A stretch of DNA of 64,000 nt, from contig JAJXZS010000050.1 in NCBI GenBank assembly GCA_021779955.1, positions 124,001 to 188,000 of the forward strand, given 5' to 3'. The notes under the pieces were generated by a model, which was not told the origin of the DNA, did not search any database, and saw only the letters and a program-made list of their open reading frames with translations. Source of the stretch: Chloroflexota bacterium. GTDB taxonomy: Bacteria > Chloroflexota > Anaerolineae > Anaerolineales > Anaerolineaceae. Shown here one piece after another: positions 34,744-64,000 of this stretch. The position numbers and the translations under genes were made by a program. How positions within the stretch are numbered: the first letter of the stretch is position 1; every line of letters starts with the position of its first letter.

Positions 34744-34983
34744 TTAGGCATAAAAATTCCGTTTTCTTTTCCAACCCGAGATTATCCTTTTCCATGTTTT
34801 CTTACAAGATCGAACGCCCTTCAGGGCATCGGAGGTTTTCAAATTGCATGCTCCAACGGCAAGTGCTTAAGTGATACATTCCATTGGCGATTAACCATGG
34901 ATTAACGCCGCAAGAAAACCCGCGACAGTAACATCACCGGATCCTGTAGTACCCACAACGTCAACATAAAAAAACAAGGTGGC
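34744..34983 (-). pseudogene. Decayed C-terminal end of a PfkB-family sugar kinase
   Basis: Directly after the xylB stop and in the same frame, the sequence encodes VVGTTGSGDVTVAGFLAALI, the PfkB C-terminal signature, then after a TAA SPMECIT, and after a second TAA ALAVGACNLKTSDALKGVRS and KKTWKRIISGWKRK, the usual end of PfkB kinases. Two stops interrupt it and the N-terminal two thirds are missing. It is the remnant of a sugar kinase once present between xylB and the mutarotase-like gene. Confidence 0.8.
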
Positions 34984-36396: not shown

Positions 36397-36397
36397 A

Positions 36398-37705: not shown

Positions 37706-38064
37706 GTGACACATCCTATGCCGTAATTTTCTAGAAAGAGTCTTTGTTACCCATTAATTGAATTTGGTTATTTTTGACTGAAAGATCCTTATTTTCCACT
37801 CACCTGGAGCATAAACCTAGTAAATTAGGTCTATGCCTTTACAAAATAAAATGGATCTAACTGTTAAAATAGCATCACCCGCAATCAAAGCAGCCATAAA
37901 GAAAACTGCTACTAAATATTTCCAGAAATTGATTCAACCATCCAAAGTCCAAAAGTAAATTTATGATCAGGTGTTGGCTTGATAAGTAGTCTTATTTCCA
38001 ACCAGTTTTCCCGTGTATAAATATTTATATCTGCCATAGTCCAATTCTTGAGTTTAATTAATAT
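37706..38064. other. Intergenic region upstream of xylA
   Basis: 359 AT-rich bases without a supported gene. It should hold the xylA promoter, but no box pair stands out. It contains the inverted repeat at 37811-37834, about 105 bases upstream of the xylA start. Confidence 0.5.
37811..37834 (-). promoter_or_regulatory. Inverted repeat upstream of xylA, candidate operator
   Basis: ATAAACCTA and TAGGTCTAT are separated by six bases and differ from perfect symmetry at one position. It is unlike the xylO-type site at 43519, so it may bind a different regulator. Confidence 0.4.
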
Positions 38065-39237: not shown

Positions 39238-39268
39238 AATTCCACCTCTTGAAAGATATAATTACTGA

Positions 39269-40798: not shown

Positions 40799-40937
40799 TA
40801 TCCAGTGAATTCGAGGATGTTCTTGCGATATTCTTTTAGTAAAAAACGTGAATGACCTCAAATGTCAATTTTATATAAATTAATAGCTAACAACCAGTCT
40901 TCCATCTTTCTACTAAAACATAAATCTTTTTAGGTTT

Positions 40938-40973
40938 CTACCGCGCCTGAGTTGGCAATCTCAGGCGCGGTAG
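40938..40973. terminator. Perfect 14-bp stem hairpin between xylF and xylG
   Basis: CTACCGCGCCTGAG and CTCAGGCGCGGTAG are separated by eight bases, 40 bases after the xylF stop. GC-rich and without a long T-run in the direction of the operon. It probably protects the abundant binding-protein mRNA and lowers readthrough to xylG. Confidence 0.75.
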
Positions 40974-41012
40974 TCTTTATAAAACGTTTACTCGTTTACC
41001 GCTGTGAATTGA

Positions 41013-42128: not shown

Positions 42129-42268
42129 TGAAATTCCTCCTTATAGATTAATGTTAATGAAACAGGCACGAACCGAGATATTTTTATTCTGGAAAATACC
42201 CTCCTTTCTTATTCGTAGGAAAAATTAAAGAAATTGGAATCCCCTTTAATGGATCCCAGAAAGTATGT

Positions 42269-43495: not shown

Positions 43496-43518
43496 TTAAA
43501 CCTTCTTAAATTTGTCTT

Positions 43519-43555
43519 ATGGAATTAGTTTGTTGAGGCAATAAACTAATTCCAT
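43519..43555 (-). promoter_or_regulatory. xylO-type operator of the XylR gene
   Basis: ATGGAATTAGTTT and AAACTAATTCCAT are perfect 13-bp arms around an 11-bp spacer GTTGAGGCAAT. The core TTAGTTTGTTGAGGCAATAA closely follows the Bacillus xylose operator (TTAGTTTGTT ... CAACAAACTAA). On the minus strand a TATAAT at 43554-43559 overlaps its edge, so a bound repressor would block RNA polymerase. Confidence 0.8.
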
Positions 43556-43707
43556 TATAGAGAATAAATAAAAAAAAACAAGCGGCATTTTTTGTTAAAC
43601 ATTAACTAGATAACAATTATGAAATTAGGAAAGTCCTTAATGAATTCGTCTGCCCGAGGTGTCAACATCCCATAAGAGGACCTTGAACTCTATTATGGTC
43701 ATTAGTA

Positions 43708-43881
43708 TAAAAATATGATCCACCAGGGACTTGAATATCATCCCCTCAATGGGGACGCTGAACCCAATTTGCTCTTTAGACTAAAAATATGATCCACCAG
43801 GGACTTGAATATCATCCCCTCAACGGGGACGCTGAACCTAATTTGCTCTTTAGAATAAAAATATGATCCACCCGGGACTTG
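43708..43881. repeat. 74-bp tandem repeat (two full units and a partial third)
   Basis: Units begin at 43708, 43782 and 43856 with TAAAAATATGATCCACC; units one and two are almost identical and the third diverges after about 26 bases into a tRNA-like 3' half. Each unit contains, on the minus strand, a tRNA-like T-loop TTCAAGT followed by an acceptor-like GGTGGATCA. The array marks the change from metabolic DNA to the defence island and resembles stacked attachment sites. Confidence 0.75.
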
Positions 43882-43905
43882 AACCCTGAACCCACTGATT
43901 AAGAG
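43864..43905 (-). pseudogene. 3' half of a tRNA (CTT anticodon, tRNA-Lys-like), attachment-site scar
   Basis: On the minus strand the sequence runs from the anticodon loop CTCTTAA through TCAGTGGGTTCAGGG, the T-loop TTCAAGT and CCCGGGTGGATCA. The 5' half (acceptor strand, D-arm and 5' anticodon stem) does not follow, so no tRNA can form. Integrases commonly target exactly this half of tRNA genes. Confidence 0.6.
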
Positions 43906-45518: not shown

Positions 45519-46343
45519 TCAAATAGGTATTTTCTTTAGAATAGAATTCACGATTAAATTATTGAACAAATCTGTGATTTGCTTCCCAATCAATTTATCC
45601 TTTATAAGCACTCCCATTTCCATATTTAGGTCCATGGCGTAATCAGTCAGATTGGCACTTGAGATAAATACCTTTTCATGATCTGCAACACCTATTTTGG
45701 CATGCAAAGAGCCAAATTTTCCATCTGAAGCATGTGGGCGATTCTCGATTGGCCAGGTATAAAACGATGCAAGCTTGAAGATGCTTTCTGAAAACGCGCT
45801 TAATCCTGAGAAAGATAACTTTCCTTGACTGCCGTTAGAATCTTCCAGACAAATAATCACGTTCACGTTTCTGCGGATTGCGTTTTCAATTGCATCAGTA
45901 ATGGGTTGGGCTTTATAGACCGCAAAGCTCACTACCAAAAGATGATTTGTTGTTCCATGGATCAGTTCTAACAAAGCTTGATCAGTACGCCGAAAGGTTG
46001 TTGATGAATTCGATGGCCCAGTCCAAATCAATTCCGTTGATGGAAAATAAGAAGTCCTTAAGGTAGCTAAAGAAGATTGAATCGATAAATAGATGCCTAA
46101 GGATGTCAACTCCGGAAAATTATTTACCCAAAAATCTATCAATTTTTGTAACTTGTTCTTAATCTGAGGGCTTTGGATAGACAACAGTAATTTTGACTTC
46201 TGATAGTCTGAAGGAATTTCATTCCAACAATAAACAGTATTCAGTACTTCCTCAACAATCTCTGGCGGTGTATTTTGAACGAAATCAGAAATTAGAAGTA
46301 CTAACGGGCTTTCATCCATGGCTGAAAAATCTGAGGTCATCAT
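45519..46343 (-). CDS. drmC: DrmC, phospholipase-D-like protein of DISARM
   Basis: 274 residues. One clear HKD half-site lies near 213-232: LHAKIGVADHEKVFISSANL, followed by MDLNMEMGVLI. An earlier half-domain contains NHLLVVSFAVYKAQPI. DrmC is the PLD-family member of DISARM and is reported as dispensable for protection in some systems. It overlaps drmB by about 32 bases; a shorter start at 46319 is possible. It is the last gene of the leftward locus. Confidence 0.88.
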   Translation of the reverse strand: MMTSDFSAMDESPLVLLISDFVQNTPPEIVEEVLNTVYCWNEIPSDYQKSKLLLSIQSPQIKNKLQKLIDFWVNNFPELTSLGIYLSIQSSLATLRTSYFPSTELIWTGPSNSSTTFRRTDQALLELIHGTTNHLLVVSFAVYKAQPITDAIENAIRRNVNVIICLEDSNGSQGKLSFSGLSAFSESIFKLASFYTWPIENRPHASDGKFGSLHAKIGVADHEKVFISSANLTDYAMDLNMEMGVLIKDKLIGKQITDLFNNLIVNSILKKIPI

Positions 46344-48183
46344 GGCTCACAGTCGAAACCAGTACTGAGCGATCAAGATAGCGATTACCCTTTTCGCAAG
46401 AAGTTTCAGGCGAGAAAAGACAAGAATGACAGGCTGCTGCATGAACCGTTGATGCGCCATAGAAAGGCATATGTTCAGAGCATGTGGGGTCGGAAGCGCA
46501 TAAACCGCAAGCCTCCAGAGCGGCATCGATATGCCTTTCCAAATTATGGGGTTCTCCCAAACTTACCAAACCACCCAATGTTCCATCGGAATCAGGAGCC
46601 GATGTGTATAAAAGGATTCCTGCCATCGGAACCCCTGGTTGTCCTGGGTTATTTGAATAAATCCGTTCTCGGATACTGGCTTGAGTGTAACCGCACTCCA
46701 TGGCAAATTGGCGCATGAGTGCATGACTAAAAGAATGCAACATGACATAACGCAAGCCAGGAAAGTTTGCTTCTGGATTCTCGATCATTCGGTTCTTGCG
46801 CCATTCAATATGTGCCTGGAAAAACATGGCTTCCCAGCTTTTAACCGCTGGTTGCGCTAACCATTTAAGAATTTCTTCCTCCTTGAATTGGAGAAAGATG
46901 CCTTCTCCGCGCACTTCAATTGCCGGAATCCAATTTGGTTTTTTTCTTGCTATTGGCGAAATTGTCTGGATTTCTTCTTCGTCGCTTTCTGCCATTTCTC
47001 CTGGAGAATCAATCCGCGTGAATCCAGCTAATGCCCTGACTTCCCGCAACCGCTCAACTAGAACGATTCGCGAAAATACTTCCTTGTACTTTTGAGGAGG
47101 CTCTACGGATTTCAATCTAAAATCGGGTGTATGGTTCTGCGATTCAGGAGTCGTAAATGCAGTCCATTCCGGCAACAAAAGGTTGGGGTGGTCGCCATTT
47201 TCACCGGTTGGTAAAATTGATCTTCTTTTATTGATGGCGTTCCATAAATCCGTGAGAGAATACTCAACAAATGCTTTCAGCTTTCCCCACTTTTCCATGT
47301 ACGCTAATTCATCAATCTTTTCCACGCGATTTAGCTCGCCCCAGTTTTCTGCAACCAAATTGTCCAATTTATCCGCTGTGGTGGGAATAGAAATCGTGTT
47401 AAGGACAAACGGAAACCAAATATTGCTGGCGCCGAGCAAGATCGTGCGCACATGGAGATCGCAACCATCTGGGTCGTAATCATGGAGGTGCGGCCGACGT
47501 CCTTTACATATTGGCATCTTCTCCCGGTTCTCTCGTCCAAAAGCCTCGGCTAGTTGCCGTTTTGCCCCACATATATTGCACTCGACATAAAGATCACGAG
47601 CTTCACCAGACGGGCCAAACTCCGATAAAGTCAGGCTTTTGTGATCATATTTGGTCGGGTCAAAGTCATGAACATATTCAACCCAGGGGAAGTCATCCAA
47701 ATGACCATTTTCACAACATACGAGGAAGCGTGCCGGCAAGACTGTTGGTTTGTTCGCACGTTGACAATTAGCATGTTCATAATGCGTTCTATCAGGATGG
47801 TAGTAATCTACCTTCAATTCAAATAACTCGGATTGGGTCGGAGCGAGAATTTGACATGACGGGCAAACCATCCATTGTGGGAAGGTGCTAACAGGCACAC
47901 CAATATGCGCTTCTTTATCGAAGGGGTTTGGTTTTCCGCCTTCATCTGGAACGCTTGGCAGTGAAAGCAGCCGCTGTACCTGATTGCCAAATTGACTTTT
48001 TAGGGCAAAGAGAAGTCGCTCTTCCTGAATTTCACGAACATATTCAGGATCAACAGGCCAATCATCTAGACCAGAAACAATGGCAGAAAGATGGGGTAAA
48101 TCAACAATCGCGCCGACTCCATAGGTGTAGAGTAGCTGAGATGGGTTGAGCTCTCCCACTTTTATATTGTTTGGCTTCGTCAT
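46312..48183 (-). CDS. drmB: DrmB, DUF1998-domain protein of DISARM
   Basis: 623 residues. It begins with the characteristic ELNPSQLLYTYGVGAIVDLP. The C-terminal DUF1998 region has the cysteine-rich CGLCASDPTCSEH and AACHSCLFSPETSCEKGN, which probably bind zinc; a further pair lies in MVCPSCQI. DrmB works with the DrmA helicase as the core DNA-sensing complex. The start overlaps the drmA stop by four bases (ATGA). Confidence 0.93.
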   Translation of the reverse strand: MTKPNNIKVGELNPSQLLYTYGVGAIVDLPHLSAIVSGLDDWPVDPEYVREIQEERLLFALKSQFGNQVQRLLSLPSVPDEGGKPNPFDKEAHIGVPVSTFPQWMVCPSCQILAPTQSELFELKVDYYHPDRTHYEHANCQRANKPTVLPARFLVCCENGHLDDFPWVEYVHDFDPTKYDHKSLTLSEFGPSGEARDLYVECNICGAKRQLAEAFGRENREKMPICKGRRPHLHDYDPDGCDLHVRTILLGASNIWFPFVLNTISIPTTADKLDNLVAENWGELNRVEKIDELAYMEKWGKLKAFVEYSLTDLWNAINKRRSILPTGENGDHPNLLLPEWTAFTTPESQNHTPDFRLKSVEPPQKYKEVFSRIVLVERLREVRALAGFTRIDSPGEMAESDEEEIQTISPIARKKPNWIPAIEVRGEGIFLQFKEEEILKWLAQPAVKSWEAMFFQAHIEWRKNRMIENPEANFPGLRYVMLHSFSHALMRQFAMECGYTQASIRERIYSNNPGQPGVPMAGILLYTSAPDSDGTLGGLVSLGEPHNLERHIDAALEACGLCASDPTCSEHMPFYGASTVHAAACHSCLFSPETSCEKGNRYLDRSVLVSTVSHDDLRFFSHG

Positions 48184-51701: not shown

Positions 51702-52031
51702 CTATTTTTGATTTGGATCTTTAAGAAGGAATTCCCGTTCCCCTATCTTTTGCAAATCCAGTTGAGGAGGGTTACCCTCTGGCCAGGGAGCCAACTTGTT
51801 TTTAATCAGCCACTTTCCTATTTCGACGCTGATTAATTCCCGACAGGATTTGTTCCAGAAGCTGTCTTTATCAATATTGATCTCTATCTTGGGAAATATG
51901 CCATCCAATGCAAGAATGATTGTCTTCCAATCTCGATCAAAATACTGGTCCCGGTCAGAAACGGAAATTTTTATTCCATAACCATTGCCATCAATATGAT
52001 GTTTGCCGTTATTCCAGCACTTGATAATCAC
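51702..52031 (-). CDS. Small unknown protein directly upstream of drmA
   Basis: 109 residues from a GTG preceded by GAAGGAG. Mixed alpha/beta without signal or membrane segments; GNGYGIKISVSDRDQYFDRD and KSCRELISVEIGKWLI are the notable stretches. It sits nine bases before drmA and 50 bases after the DUF262 gene, so it could belong to either. No family recognised. Confidence 0.7.
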   Translation of the reverse strand: MIIKCWNNGKHHIDGNGYGIKISVSDRDQYFDRDWKTIILALDGIFPKIEINIDKDSFWNKSCRELISVEIGKWLIKNKLAPWPEGNPPQLDLQKIGEREFLLKDPNQK

Positions 52032-52081: not shown

Positions 52082-54079
52082 TCAAACTTGAGACCAAATC
52101 GCTTTCACTGCTTCAAAGAATATCTTTTGACGTTGTTCAACTTTGTCAATTGGGAATACCCCTGTTGGATCGGCAAGGATTGTCGCGTTCCGGAACGGCT
52201 CAGGAAGAAGTTTTGCATCCACCCCAGCAAGGTGGCCAACAAGCAACTCATTCCATATTATGTCACTCGTTTCGTAATCTTCAATCTTGTCCAGATAAAC
52301 ATCATTACCACTGCTAATATTTTGCAGATCCTTTAATAACAATACCATCCCAAGGTAATTGCGAATCTGGTCAAATAAAGCAGAATCGTATACTTGTGTT
52401 TCGGGATCGAGGAATAGTCTTTGATTTGCGTCGTTGTGAGCATAAATATGTTCCAAATGCATGCCATAGCGCTTTCGGCTTGAACGGTTGAACCGTTCTT
52501 CGATCACTTCTGGCGAACCCTGACAATAGCTGGGCTTATCAAGTAGTTCACTCAGCCAATGGTCGATGCGCATTAGGACATACTTACTGAAGTTTGCGCT
52601 GTTGTTCCGTCCATTTTTGAATATTTCGTATGTGAAGATATCTTCAACTTTGCCATTGAATTCTTTGTCCAACCGTTCTTCTTCTTTAAGGGTTTTAATG
52701 ATTAGCTTGTCAAATATGGCTCGGCACTCGGGTTCGGTTTTGTTTCGGAGACTATCGTTTAGACCATAAACCAACCGCTGGAATGTGTTGCTATCATAAA
52801 TTCCCAGAATTCGCAGGATCACATGCAGTTGATCAAATTTGGCAGAGATCGTACGAATTTTCGCTTCGCGTTGAGGGTCATTAAGAGTAATTGCCGACAT
52901 GATCAATAAGTACTGCTGGTTTTGGTCCTGCAACTTGTTATAAAGTAGATGTGGTCGTTCAGGGCTGTAATCAGAGCGCAATTCCTGGTAAAGGGTTGCG
53001 TAATAGTTAATTTCGTTTTTGATGATCTTAAACATTTTTGTGTGGTCGTGGAATTCACCAAAGAATTTGCGCAATTCCGGACGGCGATAGATTTCATAGT
53101 GATAGTCTCGCTCAAAAGAATCGTAGTCATATTCAGTCTTGGCGAACTTTGCCCTGAAATAAATGCGAAAGAAATCATCCAGATTTATACTGGTCTCTGT
53201 GGTGTTCTTCAGCTCTGTTTTGTAAAACAGATCCTGAAGAGCCACCCATATTTGATTGGCTTCTTCTTTTTCATTGGGGGGGAGATTTCCAATGAATTTA
53301 CCTTTTAGAATTTCGTAAGGCTTAAGGCCTAACCCGCGGTCATTGACCACTTCAAATATCATGGCGACGTTGTCCTGCCGCTCGATACGGATTTCAACAA
53401 TAGAAATACGATCGAGAATATAGGTAATGTAATAAGTTAGTTTAGGAAGGTCATAGCCACTGGCATCAATATCTGAACTGAAGTACTTCTCGAAGTATTC
53501 GGAGATTAAAATGAAGTTATCTTTGAGTCGCTTCTGAGTCTCATCAGTTGGTTTAAAATCCGCTCCATCTACCAAAGCCCGCAGTTGAACTTCACGGTTC
53601 GCGTTGAAAATCTTAAAATGGGTTGCTCCACCGAAATCATCCATTTCGAATATCAGCGTTTGCAAGGCGGCAGGTGTAAAAGTCTTTCCTCGAGATTCAG
53701 GTACTGCTTCAACTACTTGCAAGATTCGATACAACTTGATCAGCATGAGCAGGAGTGTGGTCAACCGCTGTTGACCGTCGACGATACCCGTTGCACTGGG
53801 AGATGTGTGGGTTAAGTAAGTGTTCAGGAAATAAGGTTCAAAATTCTCCAATACGTCCTGTTGTATTTCTTTAGGCGAAGATTTTCCCCGCGGACCCAGT
53901 TCAAATCGAACTTCCAGGTCGTTTAGAAGGGTTTTCACCTGCACATCTGTCCATTTGTACTCGCGTTGATAAATATCAATGTAGTAAGACCGCGTTGCAT
54001 TAAATACCATTCTGATGTTCTGATCATGCGGGGTGATCAAATTCCGAACCGTTGCTTGTGATCGATCGGTTTCTGCCAT
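52082..54079 (-). CDS. DUF262/DUF1524-type nuclease, GmrSD-like, nested in DISARM
   Basis: 665 residues; GAGGAGAA precedes the ATG. N-terminal DUF262 domain with DIYQREYKW near 35-43 and the nucleotide-binding IVDGQQRLTTLLLML near 99-113. Helical middle part. The C-terminal HNH-like site is HLEHIYAHND at 541-550 (DUF1524 type). GmrSD and BrxU enzymes of this build are nucleotide-dependent type IV restriction enzymes that cut modified phage DNA. Placed between drmMI and drmA, it would extend the locus to phages with modified DNA that evade methylation-based discrimination. Intact. Confidence 0.87.
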   Translation of the reverse strand: MAETDRSQATVRNLITPHDQNIRMVFNATRSYYIDIYQREYKWTDVQVKTLLNDLEVRFELGPRGKSSPKEIQQDVLENFEPYFLNTYLTHTSPSATGIVDGQQRLTTLLLMLIKLYRILQVVEAVPESRGKTFTPAALQTLIFEMDDFGGATHFKIFNANREVQLRALVDGADFKPTDETQKRLKDNFILISEYFEKYFSSDIDASGYDLPKLTYYITYILDRISIVEIRIERQDNVAMIFEVVNDRGLGLKPYEILKGKFIGNLPPNEKEEANQIWVALQDLFYKTELKNTTETSINLDDFFRIYFRAKFAKTEYDYDSFERDYHYEIYRRPELRKFFGEFHDHTKMFKIIKNEINYYATLYQELRSDYSPERPHLLYNKLQDQNQQYLLIMSAITLNDPQREAKIRTISAKFDQLHVILRILGIYDSNTFQRLVYGLNDSLRNKTEPECRAIFDKLIIKTLKEEERLDKEFNGKVEDIFTYEIFKNGRNNSANFSKYVLMRIDHWLSELLDKPSYCQGSPEVIEERFNRSSRKRYGMHLEHIYAHNDANQRLFLDPETQVYDSALFDQIRNYLGMVLLLKDLQNISSGNDVYLDKIEDYETSDIIWNELLVGHLAGVDAKLLPEPFRNATILADPTGVFPIDKVEQRQKIFFEAVKAIWSQV

Positions 54080-54113: not shown

Positions 54114-54254
54114 TCAGGTTGTACAATCTTCTTTTGATCGAACCCATCTCCCCGCCTTCCTATTGGCTAGAGCCTTGTCTTGATGCGCAGACTATGTGTG
54201 TTCTTCGATGATATAGCCGACCAAGTACTTGCCATGGCTACCAGTCAACATCAC
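54114..54254 (-). pseudogene. Decayed duplicate of the drmMI 3' tail
   Basis: Read on the minus strand it gives GKYLVGYIIEEHT, a stop, then SAHQDKALANRKAGRW, closely following the drmMI C-terminus GMTLMGFSIEEHTKSVHQG. At DNA level the stretch around 54180-54211 matches 55586-55617 at about 25 of 32 positions. The 5' part of the gene is missing. It lies between the CHAT-like gene and the DUF262 gene, so the cargo at 54.3-55.5 kb is bracketed by two drmMI tails. Confidence 0.55.
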
Positions 54255-54345
54255 GGCGAAACCCTAGAAGAGCTAAGTTGTGGAAAAAGATCAAATTAAG
54301 CAGGTCTTCTATTAGTATTTTTGGGTTGGTTTCAAAGTTGCTCAT
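54238..54345 (-). CDS. 35-residue reading frame coupled to the CHAT-like gene (uncertain)
   Basis: The ATG shares a base with the TAA of the CHAT-like gene (TAATG), and AAGGAG stands six bases upstream. The peptide has an acidic start and an amphipathic or hydrophobic stretch (ILIEDLLNLIFFHNLALLGF) before the stop. It could be a small effector or partner, or the truncated N-terminus of a larger protein cut off where the drmMI tail remnant begins. Confidence 0.35.
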   Translation of the reverse strand: MSNFETNPKILIEDLLNLIFFHNLALLGFRRDVDW

Positions 54346-54965
54346 TAAAGCTCCTTCTTGTTTCCCTTTTGGAATTGGGTCAATTTGATCCCATTATTAT
54401 TCGAATAAGAATAGTAATTCAAATTCAATCTGAAAAGGCGAGTTAACTTCTTCAAATTGCCCACAATATCATCACGTCTGATCTTGATATCACCTGTCTG
54501 ATCGCGAAAACACAAATAATAGAATGTTGACCACATTAGAGCTGCATCATTGAAGGAAATGTCTTCGTATGAACCTACAAGTGATGTACACCCTGTGTTA
54601 TGCAACAGGACATTGGCCAGTACATGATTATGATGGTTTACGACTTTGCAAGAAGATATGAATACTCTTTTCCCTTTTAAAATGTGATCAATTTGAGGAA
54701 AGTGATTAAATGGCAAATCGCCAAATTGAGCCTCAAATGAGTTTTCATCTCCATGAAAAGATAAATGAAGATACCTATAGTTTGATTCAGAAAATTCATT
54801 CATAGCATCACGAAGTTCTGGAAAAGTTTTTACATACTTGTATTTAGGTTTCATCTCATACATTAGTAGGACTTGTTCAATTATGTGACCCACCCTATGT
54901 GTTTCAACATCATCCTCATGCAGGCTTTCAACTATAAATACTTCTGGAACTGTATCTTTTGACAT
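54345..54965 (-). CDS. Small caspase/CHAT-like cysteine protease
   Basis: 206 residues. The dyad is His71 in YLHLSFHGDENSF and Cys106 in KRVFISSCKVV, followed by the CHAT-type tail LANVLLHNTGCTSLVGSYED and DAALMWSTFYYLCF, where family members have ALxxAGAxxVVGTLW and a final FY helix. There is no repeat or sensor domain attached; the N-terminus starts directly with VPEVFIVESL. CHAT proteases are known effectors in gasdermin and CRISPR-linked (Craspase) immunity. Here it lies in cargo between drmMI and the DUF262 nuclease, next to a two-helix membrane protein. The fold call is from motifs only. Confidence 0.68.
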   Translation of the reverse strand: MSKDTVPEVFIVESLHEDDVETHRVGHIIEQVLLMYEMKPKYKYVKTFPELRDAMNEFSESNYRYLHLSFHGDENSFEAQFGDLPFNHFPQIDHILKGKRVFISSCKVVNHHNHVLANVLLHNTGCTSLVGSYEDISFNDAALMWSTFYYLCFRDQTGDIKIRRDDIVGNLKKLTRLFRLNLNYYSYSNNNGIKLTQFQKGNKKEL

Positions 54966-55075: not shown

Positions 55076-55112
55076 TTCTCCCGATCACCTGATCATCAAG
55101 CGGTCGGGAGAA
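55076..55112. repeat. Inverted repeat downstream of the two-helix protein gene
   Basis: TTCTCCCGA and TCGGGAGAA are perfect 9-bp arms around a 19-base centre that itself contains TGATCATCA. It is placed where a terminator of the membrane-protein gene would be, but no T-run follows. Between it and the CHAT gene, one minus-strand frame ends in KSWFEKLKKKSRYPEFAKIM, possibly the tail of another lost gene. Confidence 0.5.
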
Positions 55113-55555: not shown

Positions 55556-58500
55556 CTAGATCCTCCTATACCCCGGGTCATTGCCTTGATGCACGGACTT
55601 CGTGTGCTCCTCAATGGAAAAACCCATCAGAGTCATTCCACACACTAGGCATTTGACACGATCCCAGCTGCCAATTTCTGCAGCAGGCGTTGGGGGCGGG
55701 GAATCGGAAGTCTCCACCTGGTCTGTAACTTCAGGTTCGGTCAAAAAGTCGAGCTGACCTTCAAACTGGATCAGTTTTTTGGGTTTCTGCCTGGCGGGTT
55801 TTTCTTCGTTTGTCTTCTTCTTGTCTTTCTCGTGCAGCCCAGCCTTGACCTCTTCTTCATACCGCTCGTGGTTTAGCTGCAGCAAGCGCGCCAGCACTTC
55901 ACGTCGTGCCGCCTCGCAGATGGTAAATCGTACTCCAATAGGCGTTAGATGAAAGCCATGGTCTAAGTTGAGGTCACCCCAGTCATATGCATTAGCTACA
56001 GAATTATCCATTTCGATCAGTAATTTCCGTAAATGCCATATATCGGGAGATGTTTCTTTTGTGGAATTGAATCGATTGAAAATAGTCGTAAGACCTTCTT
56101 CTCGGCTTTTCATCAATTCGCGCCTACTTTCATGATAGAGCGCGCCAATACCTTCCAATTCATCTATTCCAGGAGGGAAAGGATAAGTTTGAAAAGCGGA
56201 AGAAGGTGTATAACTAAGATCCTGTTTTAGAGTTGAACAATAAGCCCTTGCCCATGCTTCATGGAAACTTGACTGCAGAACTGAAAAATGCGAAAAATCA
56301 TCGTAAGCTATTATTATCACTTTACTTGAAAAAACCATTTTCTTCTCAACTCTAACAAATGCCGCGGTTTTGCTGGTAACTGCTATTCCAAAGGCAAATT
56401 TCAATTGAGAGATTGATTCATAAAGATTCTTTTGCCTTTCTGCAAATTGCCACCACTTTTCTCTATACTGTCTTCTGTTAACCAAGTCACGCTGAGGCTT
56501 CACTTTTTCTACAACGATTCTGAAACACTCTGTATATTGTTGCGCTTTTTCTAAGGGCCAATCATGAAAGTTAATTATCCACCGGCTTGGTTTTTGTTCT
56601 GGATTGCTGTTTAAATCTTCTCCATTCAAATATGGAAAAAGAATATCTTTATTTCTTGAATCTTTCATAATCAAATCATGGGCTTCAATTGGTAATAACA
56701 AGAATCCTAAGCCTAATACATTAGTTCCCATATGACTCTTCTTATCATTGCTTCTGAGGACATATGGAAATGTATCCTTAACCGCCTCGTCTAAGAAAGA
56801 TGAAATAAAGCCAACTAACTTACCATTCAAATTTCTATCCGAGTCCCACCTGCCCTTCATAACAACTACAAGACTAACTATAACTGCGGCGGATCCCGGC
56901 CAACTTGTGGATGAAGTTGCAAAGATAATGTTCCCTTTTTGGACAATAAAATCTAATCCGACATCTCTTGTATCACCTTGGGCTATTGAATTTGTGGCAA
57001 TTAAACCCAATGTACCAGCAATTCTTAAGTTTTCAAATGATTGTAGAAAAAAGAAAGCACACAAATCGGCTGAGCCTGTTTTGTGCGACCATCTTATTTT
57101 TAAGTAATCAAGGTAATGAATTCCATACGTTGGGCTAATTCTTTTTCCTCCTAGAAACGGTGGATTACCTACAAACGCACTGAATCCACCAGTCCCTTCT
57201 GTTGCATACACCTCCGGGAATTCGAATGGCCAGTGGAAGGCGCGTTCTTTGCGGGCGGCGCTCAGTGCGCGCTGGGCATCCAGCGTGTTCATGGGCAAGC
57301 CAGCCAAATAGTCCGATAATAGGTGTGAGAGCAGTGTTTCCTGTTCAGCGAGTTTCAGTCCCAGCATGCGCACACCCACCAGCAGGTCGCAGCCCAGTAT
57401 CACCCGCGCCATGGCGGCGTCGGCTTCTTTCAGCAGTTCAGCCTTGTGGTCGACGTCGTGCACGTCCAGCACGGTGAAGCTCTCCAGCTCTTTGCGTTTC
57501 TGGCGCGCTACGTCCAAATGCTGGTTGAGTACTTCGTAATCCAGGGTAAAGGCAGCGTCTTTACGGCTGTAAGCCCACTTTTTGAACATCTCTTCATCTG
57601 CACCTACCAGTGAATCGCCGCATTTCAGGGCGTGATCCAAAAAGGTAAATGGCCGGCCTTTGTCCATGGTGGTCAGCCAGATTGACAGCTTGGCAATTTC
57701 CACCGCCAGCGGGTTCTTATCCACACCGTAAATACAACGGTCCGCCACCAGGCGTTTGGCAAGGATCAACCGCTCTTCATCGTCTTTGGGTAATATGACC
57801 TCATTGAGTCTGCCGGTGGCCAGTTTTCCTTCGGGGGTGATCCTCAATTCCCCATTTCCTTCTTTGGAAAGGGGCAATTGATCCCAGACTTCGACCAGCC
57901 GTTCAGACAGGTAACGGATGACCTGCACCAGAAAGCCCGCAGAACCCATGGCCATATCGCAAACCTTCAAGTCCAATAACGCTGCCGGCGATTTGAGCTT
58001 CCACCGTTCTTTGGATAGTCCTTCAGCCGGGCCAATGTAAACCAACGGCTCGAGTGTGTGTTGGACGATCGGTTCGGTCAAAATCTTGGGTGTGTAATGG
58101 GTGCCCGTGGCACGGCGAGTGGCACCGGCAGTGACATAGACGCTGTCGGGCAGGAAAACCGCAGGATATCCAAAGTCATCTTCGCGCAGCAGACCGGCAA
58201 ACTCTGCCACCCGGTTGTATATCGCCGGGTCATTATTGCAAGCGATCTGCAAATGGTGATTGCCAAAAACATCCACCTTTTGCTGCCAGGCATTGCGCAA
58301 AGCATTCTCAGAGCGTCCGGTTCGCTCTTTTAAGAATGCAAGAAAGCTTCTTTCTCCTTTGGCTACCTCGGCATCCAGTACAGAAATGGGAATTTCAGGC
58401 TCGTTTTCCCGCGTTCCGGTCAACCCCAGAACAGGTTCCTTTGCCCGCATTGCGACGTGATCCAGCAAGCCTTCATAGACATGGCCGATCTGTTCCACGT

Positions 58501-59776
58501 CCAGTGCACGAAAGGAAAGCCGCCTTGCTTCAGCGGGTCCACCGCCAGGCACCTTGACTCGCAGAACCTGCAAAGCATCCAACAAATGGAGTACAGTGCG
58601 GTTCGAAATGGGGAGAACCCGATCATCTTCATTCTTTTCTGCAGTAGTTCGGCCCTCGAGGAATGGATAGCGATCAGGGTCAAAGAGGCTGCCACCATAA
58701 GCCGGCAGAGAGAGGCGGTCGTGATGAATTCCGTCATGCACCGCACGAAAGGTCGCCAGCAGCCGGCACCAGGCATCGAACCGACGTTCCAGTACTTCTT
58801 CTCCTTGATGATCTGCTGTCTCACGCAGTTGAGCGCGCAGTGTGGAGACTGCATAATTCTCGTCGTAAAGCGGGTCGCCCAGGAGCAATAGACCGCGTTC
58901 TTCGGCAGTAAACAGGAAGACCAAGCGCATCATCACCGTCAGGGCAGCTTCATAAAGATCCGATTCACTGATCTCTTTGAGCAGTGTGCGATTGCGATCC
59001 TGGTCGATCTTGTCAATGGCACGGATCAGCACTTCCACCGCACGACGTACCTGATAGCCCAACTGATCGGTTACTTCCTGCTGATCGTTGAAGCTCTCTT
59101 TGAGCATGCCTTCGAGGGTGTCCTCTTCTGCAACAGCGAAGAATCGGTCATCCCCGAGAAGTGAGGTAAAAGCACGGTAAGTGAGCGGTTCTTCGAGCCA
59201 TATAGCGGCGTACCACGAAATAAAGGAACTGGTTTCCCCCTTGGGGGCGTTGACTAACATCCATTGCTCGCCATTCGTCACCAACCCCAGTGAAACGCCA
59301 GTAGCTCGCAAGAGCTCCAGCATCCGCATCGATGGCGATGCCTTCCAGTGGCTGTCTCGAGTGGTTTTCTCCAATCCCTGGGAGACTGGATAATATTGCA
59401 CCAGCATACGCGGTTTGGAGGAGTCCGCAGCGGGATCGGCAATCGCCAGATCTGGGCGAAGAGTGACTCCCTGTTCAGCGATGAATGCGGACAACGTCGG
59501 AGGAATCGCAGGACCTTCAAGGACCTGTGGTTTCTCGAACCCAAGAACATGCTCGAGCACATAACGGATCCACACCGAGTGAATCGCCGGAGATGGCTTC
59601 AAGCTGTTTTGATCATCGAGCCATTCGTTGTATGCCAGGCGCAGCTCAGCCAGTTGATCATGGTCCAGTGCGTTTAATCCCTGGGGGAAGGTACGCATCA
59701 AGACAGGCATGCTCAAGAACGGTCCGGAGACTTCAATTAATGAAAGCCATTCGTTGTGGTGTCGGGCTATGGACAT
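55556..59776 (-). CDS. drmMI: DrmMI, DISARM class 1 adenine-specific DNA methyltransferase
   Basis: 1406 residues. Motif I is CDMAMGSAGFLVQ near 607-619 and motif IV FVGNPPFLGG near 870-879, as in Eco57I/PglX-type N6-adenine methyltransferases. The N-terminal 550 residues include a nuclease-like or recognition region and helical segments; the C-terminal part has a target-recognition domain, a Lys/Glu-rich linker near 1330 and a zinc-finger-like CLVCGMTLMGFSIEEHTKSV (Cys2-His2 pattern). It marks host DNA so that DISARM spares it. The size and position identify class 1 rather than class 2 (DrmMII, a cytosine enzyme). Confidence 0.92.
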   Translation of the reverse strand: MSIARHHNEWLSLIEVSGPFLSMPVLMRTFPQGLNALDHDQLAELRLAYNEWLDDQNSLKPSPAIHSVWIRYVLEHVLGFEKPQVLEGPAIPPTLSAFIAEQGVTLRPDLAIADPAADSSKPRMLVQYYPVSQGLEKTTRDSHWKASPSMRMLELLRATGVSLGLVTNGEQWMLVNAPKGETSSFISWYAAIWLEEPLTYRAFTSLLGDDRFFAVAEEDTLEGMLKESFNDQQEVTDQLGYQVRRAVEVLIRAIDKIDQDRNRTLLKEISESDLYEAALTVMMRLVFLFTAEERGLLLLGDPLYDENYAVSTLRAQLRETADHQGEEVLERRFDAWCRLLATFRAVHDGIHHDRLSLPAYGGSLFDPDRYPFLEGRTTAEKNEDDRVLPISNRTVLHLLDALQVLRVKVPGGGPAEARRLSFRALDVEQIGHVYEGLLDHVAMRAKEPVLGLTGTRENEPEIPISVLDAEVAKGERSFLAFLKERTGRSENALRNAWQQKVDVFGNHHLQIACNNDPAIYNRVAEFAGLLREDDFGYPAVFLPDSVYVTAGATRRATGTHYTPKILTEPIVQHTLEPLVYIGPAEGLSKERWKLKSPAALLDLKVCDMAMGSAGFLVQVIRYLSERLVEVWDQLPLSKEGNGELRITPEGKLATGRLNEVILPKDDEERLILAKRLVADRCIYGVDKNPLAVEIAKLSIWLTTMDKGRPFTFLDHALKCGDSLVGADEEMFKKWAYSRKDAAFTLDYEVLNQHLDVARQKRKELESFTVLDVHDVDHKAELLKEADAAMARVILGCDLLVGVRMLGLKLAEQETLLSHLLSDYLAGLPMNTLDAQRALSAARKERAFHWPFEFPEVYATEGTGGFSAFVGNPPFLGGKRISPTYGIHYLDYLKIRWSHKTGSADLCAFFFLQSFENLRIAGTLGLIATNSIAQGDTRDVGLDFIVQKGNIIFATSSTSWPGSAAVIVSLVVVMKGRWDSDRNLNGKLVGFISSFLDEAVKDTFPYVLRSNDKKSHMGTNVLGLGFLLLPIEAHDLIMKDSRNKDILFPYLNGEDLNSNPEQKPSRWIINFHDWPLEKAQQYTECFRIVVEKVKPQRDLVNRRQYREKWWQFAERQKNLYESISQLKFAFGIAVTSKTAAFVRVEKKMVFSSKVIIIAYDDFSHFSVLQSSFHEAWARAYCSTLKQDLSYTPSSAFQTYPFPPGIDELEGIGALYHESRRELMKSREEGLTTIFNRFNSTKETSPDIWHLRKLLIEMDNSVANAYDWGDLNLDHGFHLTPIGVRFTICEAARREVLARLLQLNHERYEEEVKAGLHEKDKKKTNEEKPARQKPKKLIQFEGQLDFLTEPEVTDQVETSDSPPPTPAAEIGSWDRVKCLVCGMTLMGFSIEEHTKSVHQGNDPGYRRI

Positions 59777-59806: not shown

Positions 59807-60157
59807 TTACCAACCTGATATTGTCTTTCCTTTTATATCGGGGTGCTGATATAGCACTGATGCAAATCTCGCCATATTGTCTTGTGCCCCTATTCGTGGT
59901 GTTATCAAGCCTTCCCTACGAACCATTTTTACTATTAACTTCGTCTTATTTTCGCTTATTTGGGAAATTCGAATAGTAGTCACAGAGGGATTTGTAATTC
60001 CATTAGAAACTTCGCCATTAATAATTCCAGTTTCTTTAGAGATTTTCTTTACTGTCCCTAGTTGATTAAGAACATCAATACAAGCCCTTGCCACATCTGC
60101 TGCAGCGATTTCAAAAATAAATTCCTGATCGTCCCTAGATTCATGCTTTGCAAACAT
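59807..60157 (-). CDS. Small unknown protein between drmD and drmMI
   Basis: 116 residues, with TAGGAGA before the ATG and 30 bases before drmMI. Predicted small alpha/beta: EFIFEIAAADVARACIDVLN, TTIRISQISENKTKLIVKMV. No membrane segment or known motif. It directly follows the drmD tail remnant, so it probably belonged to the locus before the cargo entered. Confidence 0.65.
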   Translation of the reverse strand: MFAKHESRDDQEFIFEIAAADVARACIDVLNQLGTVKKISKETGIINGEVSNGITNPSVTTIRISQISENKTKLIVKMVRREGLITPRIGAQDNMARFASVLYQHPDIKGKTISGW

Positions 60158-60176: not shown

Positions 60177-60345
60177 TTAATAAATTTTGAGACTGTAATA
60201 TGTAACTGCAACAGGGAAAATTCTCACATGAGGATTTACATATCGTTTCTGAATGATCATTTCTTCCTACTCAATCTCTCGTGGAATAGCTGCCAATCTG
60301 CGGTTCTCATGCAAAACTTGCGCGAATACAGGCATCAGCACCATC
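60177..60345 (-). pseudogene. Decayed duplicate of the drmD 3' tail
   Basis: On the minus strand: RRLAAIPREIE, a stop, EEMIIQKRYVNPHVRIFPVA and a final TAA. The intact drmD ends RRLAAIPGEIEQEK, AIVKRFLNPRTRMFPMA. A 73-base ungapped alignment (60230-60302 against 60964-61036) has about 53 identities, including 20 identical bases in a row. The two tails bracket the gene at 60421-60897. Confidence 0.82.
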
Positions 60346-60420
60346 CAATTAAGGACCCGTACGGTACTTAGAGAAGCGAGAGCCATTTGCTACGATGTCT
60401 GGCTATTAAAGACATAAAGA

Positions 60421-60897
60421 TTACTCGTCATCTACTTGATCATTGGATTCGCTGGAATATGATTTTCGGACTGCCTCGATTAGTTTACGGTCATAAGATG
60501 CGCTGTTGATGCTTCGATTGGCAATGAGTATTAATACAAGCCAGAGAATTACCACAATTGTCTGGCTGACTAAAGAGTTCTTTGAAATTGCTTCCAATAA
60601 CAAGATAACAATAAATATTGCTATCAGGAATAGCAAATTCCAAAGGGTTAAATAAATGGCATGAATTTCCATGTCACTGACTTTAATTCCTTTGCGGTGT
60701 GCTTCTGTAACTAAATCATGGAATGCTTTTTGTTTGGCAGTATTTTTCTCGGCTTGTCTGGTCGAAAATTTCGCCCAAAGATTTTGAAATCGGGCATATA
60801 AGAAATTCCCGACTATTGAAACCAGAAGGCTCACAAAAACCGTAGCAAACCAAAAGACTGGACTTTTTACTAATTCCGATATTTCGTTGAGATCCAT
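60421..60897 (-). CDS. Three-helix membrane protein in DISARM cargo
   Basis: 158 residues. One helix lies near 14-34, then a basic amphipathic region (about 40-75) and two close helices near 82-128, with an acidic tail ending DQVDDE. AAGG precedes the ATG. It starts ten bases after drmD, so it is translated from the same mRNA. It is the only gene between the intact drmD end and the duplicated drmD tail. No family recognised; SLATT-like or similar signalling membrane proteins have this kind of layout. Confidence 0.62.
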   Translation of the reverse strand: MDLNEISELVKSPVFWFATVFVSLLVSIVGNFLYARFQNLWAKFSTRQAEKNTAKQKAFHDLVTEAHRKGIKVSDMEIHAIYLTLWNLLFLIAIFIVILLLEAISKNSLVSQTIVVILWLVLILIANRSINSASYDRKLIEAVRKSYSSESNDQVDDE

Positions 60898-60907
60898 TTT
60901 TACCTTT

Positions 60908-63900
60908 TCATTTATATTTTTCTGGAATCAAGAAGACAACAGCCATTGGAAACATTCGCGTCCGAGGATTCAAAAATCTCTTTACAATCGCTGTCTTCTC
61001 CTGCTCAATTTCTCCCGGAATAGCTGCCAATCTGCGCCGCAAGGCATCCATATTACGGTTCAATTGTTCTCTTTCTTCACTGGTGAAAAGCTCAAGTTGC
61101 ACCATCTCTGGCTCATCCAGTTCCTTCCTGATTGATGCAGCCAGTTCATTGAGGACGCTTTCAATACTCCTGGCTTCAAACGCTGAACGATCTAACAGTA
61201 ATTTCTGGATGCCGTCCATACGATCCTTGGAACGCGCTTCCAATGCAGACGCGATGGCTGGAATAATGTGTGGATAAAGATCTAGCAAACGTTGCTGTAA
61301 TTGCGTACTGGGCTCTTGGTAAGATGCGGCATTGATCGCATTTGCTATCTGACCGACGTTCATCCGAACCAACTTGCCTTCTTTTAAATACCCTCCAGCT
61401 GAGATAATCTCCTCATGCAACCGGTTCTGATTTCCCCCAATGATCACCTGGCGGGCAAAAGCGATTACGGCAGGGTCCGGAAGCGTCGAATCCGAAACGA
61501 TGCGTGCCGTCAAACGGTGCAAGCCTTTCCTGCTAGCTGGCGACCACACCTCGGCTCGAAGGACGCGAAGCGACATCTGTACCAACCGATGATTGAGGTG
61601 AGCTAATACCACGTCATCCCGTCCGTCTACTAAGTTATGGTCAAAAACGATGGGTCGCATTTTCCCGGTATGAGGATGAGGCAGGCCTTCTGCACACACA
61701 GCCCAACTTCCGGTCAAGGCCGGCAGCTCATAAGCTGGGATCTCATTTTTCTGAGGATTTTCTGGAAGGGCAGTTAGCTTCACAGGAATTAACGGCCTCT
61801 GGCCCACTAATTCCAAAGCGGTTGCCACAATGTTCTCGGAATTTTCAGGAGAGAAGTTCATTTCCTGGCGTGTCTCTTGAAGCTGTTCCATATGGCGTGC
61901 AATCTGCGCTCGCAGATCTCGTTCAAACTTGAGCATTCGACGTACTGGTTCGTTTTCTTTTTCAGCCCGGGTTGTATCCAAGCGGTGGCGCCGGCCAAGC
62001 ATGGCTTCTTCTACTTGCAGAGCAATGACTGGGCCAACTTTACCCAGATCTTCCCGAATTTGTTCGACTTTCTTTACAGCTCTGAAGAGAAATTCCAAGT
62101 CTCCTTCAAGCCCTTCACCATGTATATCCCAGTTATTAACTTCCTGGTCTTTATAACCTTTTGATACAAAATGAAAAACCTGAACCTCATGAGTCTGACC
62201 ATGGCGATCCAAACGTCCATTTCGCTGCTCCAGTCGGTTCGGATTCCAGGGAATTTCCATGTGCACGATTCGGTAGCAATGATTTTGCAGATCGATGCCC
62301 TCTGAAGCGGCATCTGTAGCCAATAAAATCCGCACAGGACTGATTTCGGGCCTGGCCTGGAAAGCAGCTTTAATGGCTTCGCGTTTGTCGTCGTCCATCC
62401 CGCCATAAAGGGTCATCAAACGATCATCCCCAGTAAAGCCTTCCGCTGCCAACAATGACTGCAAAGAATTAAGAGTGGCTCGATATTCCGTAAAAATGAC
62501 GACACGTTCATTCGACCAAACACCTTTAGGCTTGATATTCAATTTCAACCAATCAAGCAAAGCCTGGATCTTGCTATCAGGTCGAGCGGAAGCCCGTCTT
62601 GACCAAACGAGCAAATGATCAAGAAGCTCTTTTTCCCTTGGCGTTAACGGCCGGAATAACCTTGACGCGGTCAGAAGGGCATCATTTTCTGATTCATCCA
62701 TAGGATCAAGTGCATCTTCATCCTCGGCAGCTTCCAATTGCTGGCGCAATATCCCATAAACAGGGCGGTGGTCATCGCTGCTTGATTTCGTTTTTTCCAG
62801 GGTTTGTAGATGTTTTTCGAGAGTTAATTCAAATGCCGCCGGAGATGAAAACAGCCTCTTTTTGAGCATTTTCATCATGAATTCTGTAGCATAATGCTCG
62901 ACAAAATCTTTTGGGTTTTGTTGGCGAAGTGTTGTGTATCCCTGCAACCATGCATGGGCTTGTTTTTCTTCCGGGGTATATGAAACCTCGATCGCCTGTA
63001 TTTGTCGTTTTGGGAAGCGTGGCGTTCCATCAAATTGAGCAGGTAATTCGCTTTTCATTCTACGGACCATTACCAATTGAAGCTGTTGGCGATCAGGTTC
63101 AATTCCACGGGCGAAACGTTGGTTATCCAGCAGTTCAAGCAGGGCTGTGAAAGACTCTTTGTATCCGTTATGGGGTGTTGCGGTCAGGAATAGTTTATGC
63201 TCAAAATGGGGAGTTATGGTGCGAATCGCTAAGGTCCGCATCGAGTCTGTTGCATATTTTCCTCGTCCGACCGGTGCGATATTATGAGCTTCATCGATGA
63301 TCAAGATATCGAATTTTCTCGGGTATTTTGGCTCATCTTCGGATGGCAAAAGCTCCCTAAATAACCGCATTGGTCGGTCTCGTTTCAAAAAATCAATGGA
63401 TGTGATCAACCTTGGGAAATGCGACCATGGATTTGTGTGTAATCCCCTTGTTCTACGTAATGCCCGCAGTAATTCAGAATCAACAATACGGAATTCCAGG
63501 CCGAACTTGTCACGCATTTGGTCATGCCATTGGATTTGCAGTGAAGACGGGCAAACGATCAAAATTGTGCGAGCTCGGTTACGGAAAATCAACTCCTGGA
63601 CAATCAATCCAGCTTCAATCGTCTTGCCCAAACCAACATCATCAGCAATCAATAGGTTGGCTCGGGGCATCTGAACTGCACGTACCAGGGGATCGAGTTG
63701 GTAATCCTCAATTGTGATACCGCTCCGGAACGGTGCTTGAAGAGATCGAATATCTGCTGAACTGATTGCTCCCCAACGAACGGCATTCAGAAAAGCATCA
63801 AATTTCTTGGGCGAATCAAATCCTGTTGCTTCAGGCAGGCCAGTCTTTTCATTTATTCTTGCATCAGGCTCTATTTCCCAAATCACCTGGAGAGTTTCAC

Positions 63901-64000
63901 CTAAAGCATCATCCTCGATGGAATTCATAGAGACGAGATGCTCAGGCTTCTCCCCATTTCCATACAGAACATCTATAGCAAGCGAGCTTTGTTGAATATC
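60908..64000 (-). CDS. drmD: DrmD, SNF2-like helicase of DISARM class 1 (5' end outside the window)
   Basis: At least 1030 residues visible. The frame is open without a break to the right edge, so the methionine at 63928 is internal: residues before it (GEKPEHLVS) and after it (MNSIEDDALGETLQVIWEIE) read as one domain. Walker A DDVGLGKTIEAGL, DEAH box LIIDEAHNIAP, LFLTATPHNGY, and C-terminal helicase motifs ATDAASEGIDLQ and RLEQRNGRLDRHGQ. DrmD defines class 1 DISARM and is the first gene of the locus. Confidence 0.93.
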   Translation of the reverse strand, partial: DIQQSSLAIDVLYGNGEKPEHLVSMNSIEDDALGETLQVIWEIEPDARINEKTGLPEATGFDSPKKFDAFLNAVRWGAISSADIRSLQAPFRSGITIEDYQLDPLVRAVQMPRANLLIADDVGLGKTIEAGLIVQELIFRNRARTILIVCPSSLQIQWHDQMRDKFGLEFRIVDSELLRALRRTRGLHTNPWSHFPRLITSIDFLKRDRPMRLFRELLPSEDEPKYPRKFDILIIDEAHNIAPVGRGKYATDSMRTLAIRTITPHFEHKLFLTATPHNGYKESFTALLELLDNQRFARGIEPDRQQLQLVMVRRMKSELPAQFDGTPRFPKRQIQAIEVSYTPEEKQAHAWLQGYTTLRQQNPKDFVEHYATEFMMKMLKKRLFSSPAAFELTLEKHLQTLEKTKSSSDDHRPVYGILRQQLEAAEDEDALDPMDESENDALLTASRLFRPLTPREKELLDHLLVWSRRASARPDSKIQALLDWLKLNIKPKGVWSNERVVIFTEYRATLNSLQSLLAAEGFTGDDRLMTLYGGMDDDKREAIKAAFQARPEISPVRILLATDAASEGIDLQNHCYRIVHMEIPWNPNRLEQRNGRLDRHGQTHEVQVFHFVSKGYKDQEVNNWDIHGEGLEGDLEFLFRAVKKVEQIREDLGKVGPVIALQVEEAMLGRRHRLDTTRAEKENEPVRRMLKFERDLRAQIARHMEQLQETRQEMNFSPENSENIVATALELVGQRPLIPVKLTALPENPQKNEIPAYELPALTGSWAVCAEGLPHPHTGKMRPIVFDHNLVDGRDDVVLAHLNHRLVQMSLRVLRAEVWSPASRKGLHRLTARIVSDSTLPDPAVIAFARQVIIGGNQNRLHEEIISAGGYLKEGKLVRMNVGQIANAINAASYQEPSTQLQQRLLDLYPHIIPAIASALEARSKDRMDGIQKLLLDRSAFEARSIESVLNELAASIRKELDEPEMVQLELFTSEEREQLNRNMDALRRRLAAIPGEIEQEKTAIVKRFLNPRTRMFPMAVVFLIPEKYK

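What the first reader, a model, noticed from the sequence alone, without database searches (positions are those of the whole stretch)
60177..61036. DISARM cargo gene bracketed by two copies of the drmD 3' tail
The intact drmD ends at 60908. About 600 bases further along the operon a second, decayed drmD tail appears with the same reading frame (RRLAAIP.EIE, an internal stop, then NP..R.FPVAV). The gene between them is a small membrane protein. This arrangement is expected if the cargo entered by recombination at the drmD 3' end, bringing or replacing the tail, much as integrative elements restore the end of their target gene. The older tail has diverged to about 73% DNA identity, so the incoming drmD end came from a relative rather than from a simple local duplication.
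Basis: seen in the sequence. Interest (0 to 1): 0.8.

Follow-up and report, generated by a model that had tools for sequence, protein, structure and literature searches.

The report
Recombination scar inside DISARM defence operon
Between two small cargo genes in a bacterial anti-phage (DISARM) operon lies a fossil made of the decayed start of one core gene fused to the decayed end of another, which suggests that such operons swap cargo genes by recombining with each other at the edges of their core genes.

Summary
The second, decayed drmD tail is real: a profile of 40 relatives' drmD ends, window excluded, finds it at E 4e-14. Directly upstream lies a decayed drmMI START (60415-60309; frameshift-aware score 61, best of 400 shuffles 33). 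The order is drmD - A - [psi-drmMI head | psi-drmD tail] - B - drmMI: two 'drmD - cargo - drmMI' junctions, stacked. The drmMI-drmA slot holds a weaker scar, a decayed drmMI tail before a GmrSD gene (0 of 300 shuffles).

This slot varies among relatives: of 45 measured, 16 are at most 120 bp and 21 exceed 450 bp. Similar leftovers occur elsewhere: L077 has cargo between two intact drmMI tails; L075 received cargo with a foreign drmMI head; L031 keeps a spare drmA head, L032 a decayed drmMI tail.

Best reading: cargo moves between DISARM operons by recombination at core-gene ends, and imperfect events leave core-gene fragments, as proposed for type VI secretion arrays. Foreign origin of the tail is unresolved, and no genome with only A or only B was found.

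The parts
60908..63928 (-). drmD, intact SNF2-like helicase of DISARM
   Evidence: PADLOC DrmD 1336.8 bits; ORF
60421..60897 (-). cargo gene A, 158 aa with three hydrophobic stretches; starts 10 bp after drmD
   Evidence: ORF; hydropathy; no Pfam family above its cut-off
60309..60415 (-). psi-drmMI head: decayed 5' end of drmMI with a stop and a frameshift, its ATG 5 bp after the stop of A
   Evidence: frameshift-aware alignment score 61 versus shuffle maximum 33 of 400; 76/104 identical with free gapping
60178..60302 (-). psi-drmD tail: decayed 3' end of drmD with an internal TAG, fused to the psi-drmMI head
   Evidence: blastn E 4e-9; HMM E 4e-14
59807..60157 (-). cargo gene B, 116 aa; starts about 22 bp after the psi-drmD end
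   Evidence: ORF; one 34% homologue elsewhere, outside any DISARM
55556..59776 (-). drmMI, intact MmeI/PglX-like methyltransferase
   Evidence: PADLOC DrmMI 1674.8 bits
55145..55471 (-). slot-2 cargo, 108 aa
   Evidence: ORF; no Pfam match
54345..54965 (-). slot-2 cargo, 206 aa, weak DUF6642 match; homologue in L117 next to a homologue of the 109-aa gene
   Evidence: Pfam E 5e-5, below cut-off; 48% in L117
54156..54233 (-). psi-drmMI tail before the GmrSD gene (54233-54180 is the significant part)
   Evidence: score 55 versus shuffle maximum 35 of 300; HMM iE 0.018; tblastn E 0.035
52082..54079 (-). slot-2 cargo, 665-aa GmrSD-type (DUF262) nuclease
   Evidence: GmrSD_N 5e-26; 77% aa to L126 in the same slot
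51702..52031 (-). slot-2 cargo, 109 aa
   Evidence: ORF; 50-51% homologues in L028 and L117
48180..51692 (-). drmA
   Evidence: PADLOC DrmA
46312..48183 (-). drmB
   Evidence: PADLOC DrmB E 2.5e-84
45519..46343 (-). drmC (phospholipase-D-like)
   Evidence: PADLOC DrmC E 8.9e-64
43864..43905 (.). putative left attachment site of the element that carries the DISARM: copy of a tRNA-Lys 3' end
   Evidence: 42 bp at 97.6% to the tRNA-Lys at L097 9394-9467

Best explanation
The slot between drmD and drmMI is a place where DISARM operons carry exchangeable cargo genes. Here two such junctions, 'drmD - A - drmMI' and 'drmD - B - drmMI', were joined by a recombination that connected the beginning of one drmMI to the end of another drmD. 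One complete drmD and one complete drmMI survive; the fused stubs between A and B decayed into a scar of about 240 bp. The likeliest route is an incoming piece of a related DISARM operon (drmD end - A - drmMI start) that recombined by homology in drmD and joined without homology at its other end inside the resident drmD tail, displacing that tail and B downstream. Shown: both stubs, their order, the spacing of each cargo gene to its core-gene ends, variability of the slot, and related leftovers in other loci. Inferred: the two-locus origin, the direction, and the one-sided illegitimate joining.
For: Composite stub drmMI head plus drmD tail. A lies 10 bp after drmD and 5 bp before the psi-drmMI ATG; B lies about 22 bp after the psi-drmD end and 30 bp before drmMI. 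Slot 1 ranges from overlap to 5 kb over 45 measured loci, and the two nearest relatives differ: L026 has another gene, L117 nothing. Cargo moves between DISARM lineages: the GmrSD gene is 77% identical to that of L126, whose drmD, drmMI and drmA are only 59, 53 and 56% identical. Related events elsewhere: L075, drmD 98.2% identical to L077, then different cargo, then 687 bp at 91.8% to L074-type drmMI, then resident drmMI from codon 88; L077, cargo between two drmMI tails; L031, spare drmA head of 122 bp at 82.8%; L032, decayed drmMI tail of 68 bp at 80.9%; window slot 2, psi-drmMI tail.
Against: No genome with drmD-A-drmMI or drmD-B-drmMI alone was found; A has only four weak partial matches (E 6e-5 to 0.009) and B one 34% match in 396 genomes of the class. 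The origin of the psi-drmD tail is unresolved, so a local duplication is not excluded. Its private changes fall 8, 3 and 8 on codon positions 1 to 3, as expected of old decay in place. The microhomology at the junction cannot be read. In slot 2 no drmA head precedes the psi-drmMI tail (z 0.2; rank 287 of 3292). Among 45 slot-1 loci only this one has the composite scar.
Confidence: 0.62

Rival explanations
1. Local tandem duplication: the drmD tail - drmMI head junction was copied in tandem within this operon, and cargo genes entered or were replaced afterwards.
For: The topology head|tail is exactly what a tandem duplication gives. The psi tail may be sister to the resident drmD (AU p 0.50). 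L117 has an empty slot 1 of 17 bp, so the duplicated piece could have been short.
Against: A and B are different genes, so at least one later insertion or replacement is needed, each landing precisely between a drmD end and a drmMI start. Divergence of the psi tail from the resident (36 of 105) is as large as between different genera here (31 of 105). L077 and L075 show exchange between lineages rather than duplication.
Confidence: 0.2
2. Deletion between two DISARM elements that once stood in tandem at the same tRNA-Lys site: the deletion ran from the first element's drmMI start to the second element's drmD end.
For: The DISARM lies on a 28-kb element between a tRNA-Lys and a partial copy of it, with integrase, ArdC-like and AAA_25 genes. 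Two further 20-bp partial copies at 43716 and 43790, 74 bp apart, are compatible with earlier insertions at that site.
Against: No other core-gene remnant was found between drmD and the tRNA, at the left end, or in 30001-43863, though a clean deletion would leave none. No genome with two tandem DISARMs was seen, but that was not searched for.
Confidence: 0.12
3. Chance similarity or an assembly artefact.
For: The contig may come from a metagenome-assembled genome; reads are not available. The psi-drmMI head was proposed after looking at the sequence.
Against: E 4e-14 for the tail and z 10.8 for the head, both at the expected gene boundaries. Stops, frameshift and 66% identity are not what a misjoin of strain variants gives.
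Confidence: 0.05

Closest known systems
Sequential displacement of type VI secretion effector-immunity modules in Vibrio cholerae (PMC5361080; passages read)
   Same: A module is anchored by homology at one end and joined without homology at the other; older pieces are shifted downstream and arrays build up. The paper also describes a displaced effector 3' end in such an array.
   Different: There the retained pieces are mostly working immunity genes. Here the retained pieces are decayed ends of core defence genes on both sides of the joint, and the module is a cargo gene inside an operon.
Rhs C-terminal displacement (known here only as cited in PMC5361080)
   Same: New 3' ends arrive and old 3' ends remain downstream as orphans, as with the drmD and drmMI tails.
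   Different: The incoming piece here carries a separate cargo gene and, in slot 1, the start of the next core gene.
Auxiliary nucleases embedded in BREX core loci (PMC12839542; passages read)
   Same: Variable extra defence genes lie between core genes of a methyltransferase-based system.
   Different: The passages read describe which genes are present, not how they enter or what they leave behind.
Integrative elements that restore the end of their target gene
   Same: Cargo ends up between a new and an old copy of a gene end.
   Different: No recombinase in the inserted stretch and no identical repeats at its borders.

Membership tests
DISARM class 1 | drmA, drmB and drmC present | tested here: met
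   PADLOC DrmA, DrmB E 2.5e-84, DrmC E 8.9e-64
DISARM class 1 | drmD helicase and drmMI methyltransferase in the same operon | tested here: met
   PADLOC DrmD and DrmMI; all on the minus strand. A passage of PMC12458937 names both genes for class I
Homology-facilitated illegitimate recombination | one end joined where donor and recipient share no homology | tested here: met
   a drmMI 5' piece is joined to a drmD 3' piece, two unrelated genes
Homology-facilitated illegitimate recombination | other end joined by homologous recombination | tested here: inconclusive
   the crossover in drmD cannot be located because the donor is unknown; in L075 the switch lies in the last bases of drmD
Homology-facilitated illegitimate recombination | microhomology at the illegitimate joint | tested here: inconclusive
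   the joint 60303-60309 is too decayed; in L075 the joint lies in a G-rich run
Target-gene-restoring integrative element | site-specific recombinase inside the inserted segment | tested here: not met
   the segment holds only gene A, without an integrase match
Target-gene-restoring integrative element | identical short repeats at both borders | tested here: not met
   the two tails differ at 36 of 105 positions; decay could have blurred a repeat
Tandem duplication | copied segment most similar to the resident gene | tested here: inconclusive
   four placements of the psi tail all allowed

The most novel reading that the evidence does not exclude
DISARM operons act as cassette platforms without a dedicated recombinase: the spaces drmD|drmMI and drmMI|drmA are standing slots, and cargo travels between operons as 'core-gene end - cargo - core-gene start' units. 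The conserved ends of the core genes serve as the recombination handles, stacked slots are a normal intermediate, and core-gene stubs are their fossil record, so that scars can be used to read the order in which cargo was gained.
Probability: 0.33. Interest if true: 0.72.

Novelty: new variant of a known kind. Interest (0 to 1): 0.52.

Why it matters
Defence operons gain and lose accessory genes quickly, but the step itself is seldom caught. If the reading holds, the ends of core genes act as the handles for swapping cargo, and their stubs give a sequence record of past swaps that can be counted over genomes. It also gives a rule for finding new cargo: look between core genes and between core-gene stubs. 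In my seven literature searches I saw no description of such scars in DISARM; the library held is partial.

Tried and rejected
Rejected: a decayed drmA head in front of the psi-drmMI tail at 54345-54238. It starts with ATG overlapping the stop of the 206-aa gene and looked plausible, but scored z 0.2, -0.6, -0.2, -0.3 and 0.3 against five drmA heads and ranked 287 of 3292 N-termini.

Rejected: that the psi-drmD tail is closer to L026 than to the resident drmD. The protein score favoured L026 (118 versus 105), but DNA identity is 70 versus 69 of 105 and the topology tests do not choose.

Led nowhere: A and B in plasmids and in viral contigs; drmD in viral contigs; the region in phage records; own-end-versus-own-gap searches in the other loci, whose hits had E 0.003 or worse and were taken as noise. 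The genome-contig scan gave three loci; two of them repeat loci fetched otherwise (contig lengths and ranges agree with L034 and L038), so only L008 was added.

Limits: the end-profile scan used a drmMI tail profile of one type only (four sequences) and therefore missed the tail in L077, found later. Self-comparison of 58 loci also listed matches that I set aside as repeats inside drmMI (L043, L076, L074, L008, L100-L102 and most of L032); one L032 match that I had first set aside proved to be a single decayed drmMI tail. Not fetched in full, hence not in the slot counts: G505, G828, G610, G602 and a second copy in G760. Only 6 of the 24 plasmid records with drmD were opened.

Full report
Observation. 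On the minus strand the window carries a class 1 DISARM operon: drmD (63928-60908), gene A (60897-60421), a remnant, gene B (60157-59807), drmMI (59776-55556), four further small or accessory genes, drmA, drmB and drmC.

The stretch directly upstream of that tail, 60415-60309, reads MSLIARHRSKWLSLL*V in one frame and VLNWMVLMPVFAQVLHE in another, which follows the start of drmMI, MSIARHHNEWLSLIEVSGPFLSMPVLMRTFPQ. A frameshift-aware alignment scores 61 over drmMI residues 3-35; 400 dinucleotide-preserving shuffles reach 33 at most, z 10.8. Simple searches see it only weakly, and I formed the hypothesis after reading the translation. Its position supports it: the ATG lies 5 bp after the stop of A, and the head ends where the drmD tail begins.

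Anatomy. The order is therefore drmD - A - psi-drmMI head | psi-drmD tail - B - drmMI. Each cargo gene sits between a drmD end and a drmMI start at operon-like spacing (10 and 5 bp; about 22 and 30 bp). This is the order expected if two 'drmD - cargo - drmMI' junctions were joined, not if one gene was inserted into one drmD end.

Relatives. drmD was searched in genomes of the family (5 of 147 with a match, own included), class (17 of 396), phylum (25 of 400) and order (15 of 400); the samples overlap. I examined 52 loci including the window, and could measure the drmD-drmMI distance in 45 (36 of 41, 9 of 11). It is at most 120 bp in 16, 121-450 bp in 8 and more than 450 bp in 21. Contents tested by Pfam include a PDDEXK_3 (GxxExxY-type) nuclease, DUF3800 and an ADP-ribosylglycohydrolase. 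The nearest relatives disagree with the window and with each other: L026 (drmD 82% aa) has a 512-aa gene, L117 (81%) has 17 bp. Between window and L026 the DNA matches are confined to drmD, drmMI and drmA, apart from the psi tail itself.

Cargo moves between DISARM lineages. The 665-aa GmrSD gene of the window's second slot is 77% identical in protein and 72% in DNA to one in L126 that also lies directly before drmA, while drmD, drmMI and drmA of L126 are only 59, 53 and 56% identical. In L117 the homologues of the 206-aa and 109-aa genes are neighbours; in the window the GmrSD gene stands between them. Just before it lies a stretch that matches the drmMI C-terminus, GKYLVGYIIEEHT*SAHQ against GMTLMGFSIEEHTKSVHQ: score 55, 0 of 300 shuffles (maximum 35), z 9.1; the same region against other drmMI tails scores z 5.6, 5.3 and 1.7, and HMM and tblastn alone are marginal (0.018 and 0.035). 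I hold it as probable. A drmA head before it was tested and not found.

Younger cases. L075 and L077 come from one genus. Their drmD genes are 98.2% identical up to 4 bases before the L075 stop; then the cargo differs; then 687 bp of L075 match L074-type drmMI at 91.8% (L077 only at about 80%); then L075 resumes the L077 type at 96.2% from drmMI codon 88. The foreign head (228 aa) ends in a stop just after the joint and the resident drmMI continues in another frame as an open frame of 1393 codons, so drmMI is split there. In L077 the slot after drmMI has an inverted PIN-domain gene (Pfam E 6e-23) with a small partner ORF, then a second drmMI tail of 115 intact codons, then an ATPase-like gene; this second tail is 343/367 identical to the real tail of L075 but 295/364 to L077's own tail, while the PIN segment is 98% identical in both. 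L031 has a 122-bp copy of its drmA start at 82.8% between a 184-aa ORF without Pfam match and a macro-domain gene. L032 has a 68-bp decayed copy of its drmMI tail about 3.5 kb downstream, at 80.9%, with an internal stop. Counting the window, L031, L032, L075 and L077, core-gene end duplications or replacements next to cargo occur in 5 of 58 loci compared; only the window has head and tail fused. On plasmids, two Planktothrix agardhii strains with drmD to drmMI 95% identical carry the same slot-1 gene (358/360) but different slot-2 genes, and divergence extends about 0.5 kb into the annotated drmA, whose first part is an extension before the conserved start. No stubs were found in the six plasmid loci.

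Origin of the psi-drmD tail. On 105 bases it groups with the drmD of the window and L026 against the rest (support 100; 98 with L117 added). Inside that group nothing is resolved: all four tested placements stay in the confidence set. Differences to L026 favour third positions (11, 4, 20; p 0.004), those to the resident do not significantly (11, 8, 17; p 0.17), and changes private to the tail are 8, 3, 8 (p 0.27).

Vehicle. Upstream of drmD, outside the window, lie genes with HIRAN, ArdC N-terminal, AAA_25 and phage-integrase domains, then a tRNA-Lys. The last 42 bp of that tRNA recur at 43864-43905 (97.6%), so the DISARM appears to be cargo of an element of about 28 kb. Two more 20-bp partial copies lie at 43716 and 43790, which leaves room for a tandem-element origin of the scar.

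Mechanism. I consider most likely that a piece of a related DISARM operon, running from the end of drmD over A into the start of drmMI, recombined by homology in drmD and was joined without homology to the resident drmD tail. The old tail and B were pushed downstream. The process resembles the one proposed for arrays of type VI immunity genes (PMC5361080, passages). The fused stubs, the slot variability and the comparable cases are shown; the donor, the direction and the one-sided joint are inferred. A tandem duplication with later cargo exchange, and a deletion between tandem elements, give the same end product and are kept as rivals.

Verdict. The thing is a recombination scar between cargo cassettes in a DISARM operon, a new variant of a known kind of process. 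Its interest lies in the recurring pattern over several loci rather than in this scar alone.

Noticed in passing
window 43700-43905 and L097 9394-9467: A 42-bp copy of a tRNA-Lys 3' end and two 20-bp partial copies spaced 74 bp apart mark the left end of a probable 28-kb integrative element carrying the DISARM.
   Followed up: partly
window 54238-54345: An open frame of 35 codons starts on the stop codon of the 206-aa gene (TAATG) and ends just before the psi-drmMI tail; it may be the head of an unknown lost gene.
   Followed up: partly
window about 55076-55112: Inverted repeat TTCTCCCGA / TCGGGAGAA with a 19-base loop between the 108-aa and 206-aa genes (seen).
   Followed up: no
L042 2973-3134: A drmMI start runs directly into what looks like a drmMI end, as if most of the gene had been deleted.
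   Followed up: no
L043 6167-6694, L032, L076, L074: Short repeated sequences occur inside drmMI and again in the slots of the same locus.
   Followed up: no
L075 3543-3582 and L077 about 3540-3600: The drmMI genes carry G-rich repeated words (GGGATAGGGTTCAGG) inside the coding region, and the L075 joint falls there.
   Followed up: partly
L096 4804-5145: The only clear homologue of B (34%) stands beside metabolic genes, not in a defence operon.
   Followed up: partly
L100 19411-19900 and L102 19293-19730: In Planktothrix plasmids the annotated drmA has an N-terminal extension of about 160 residues, joined by short repeats, that differs between strains more than the rest.
   Followed up: no
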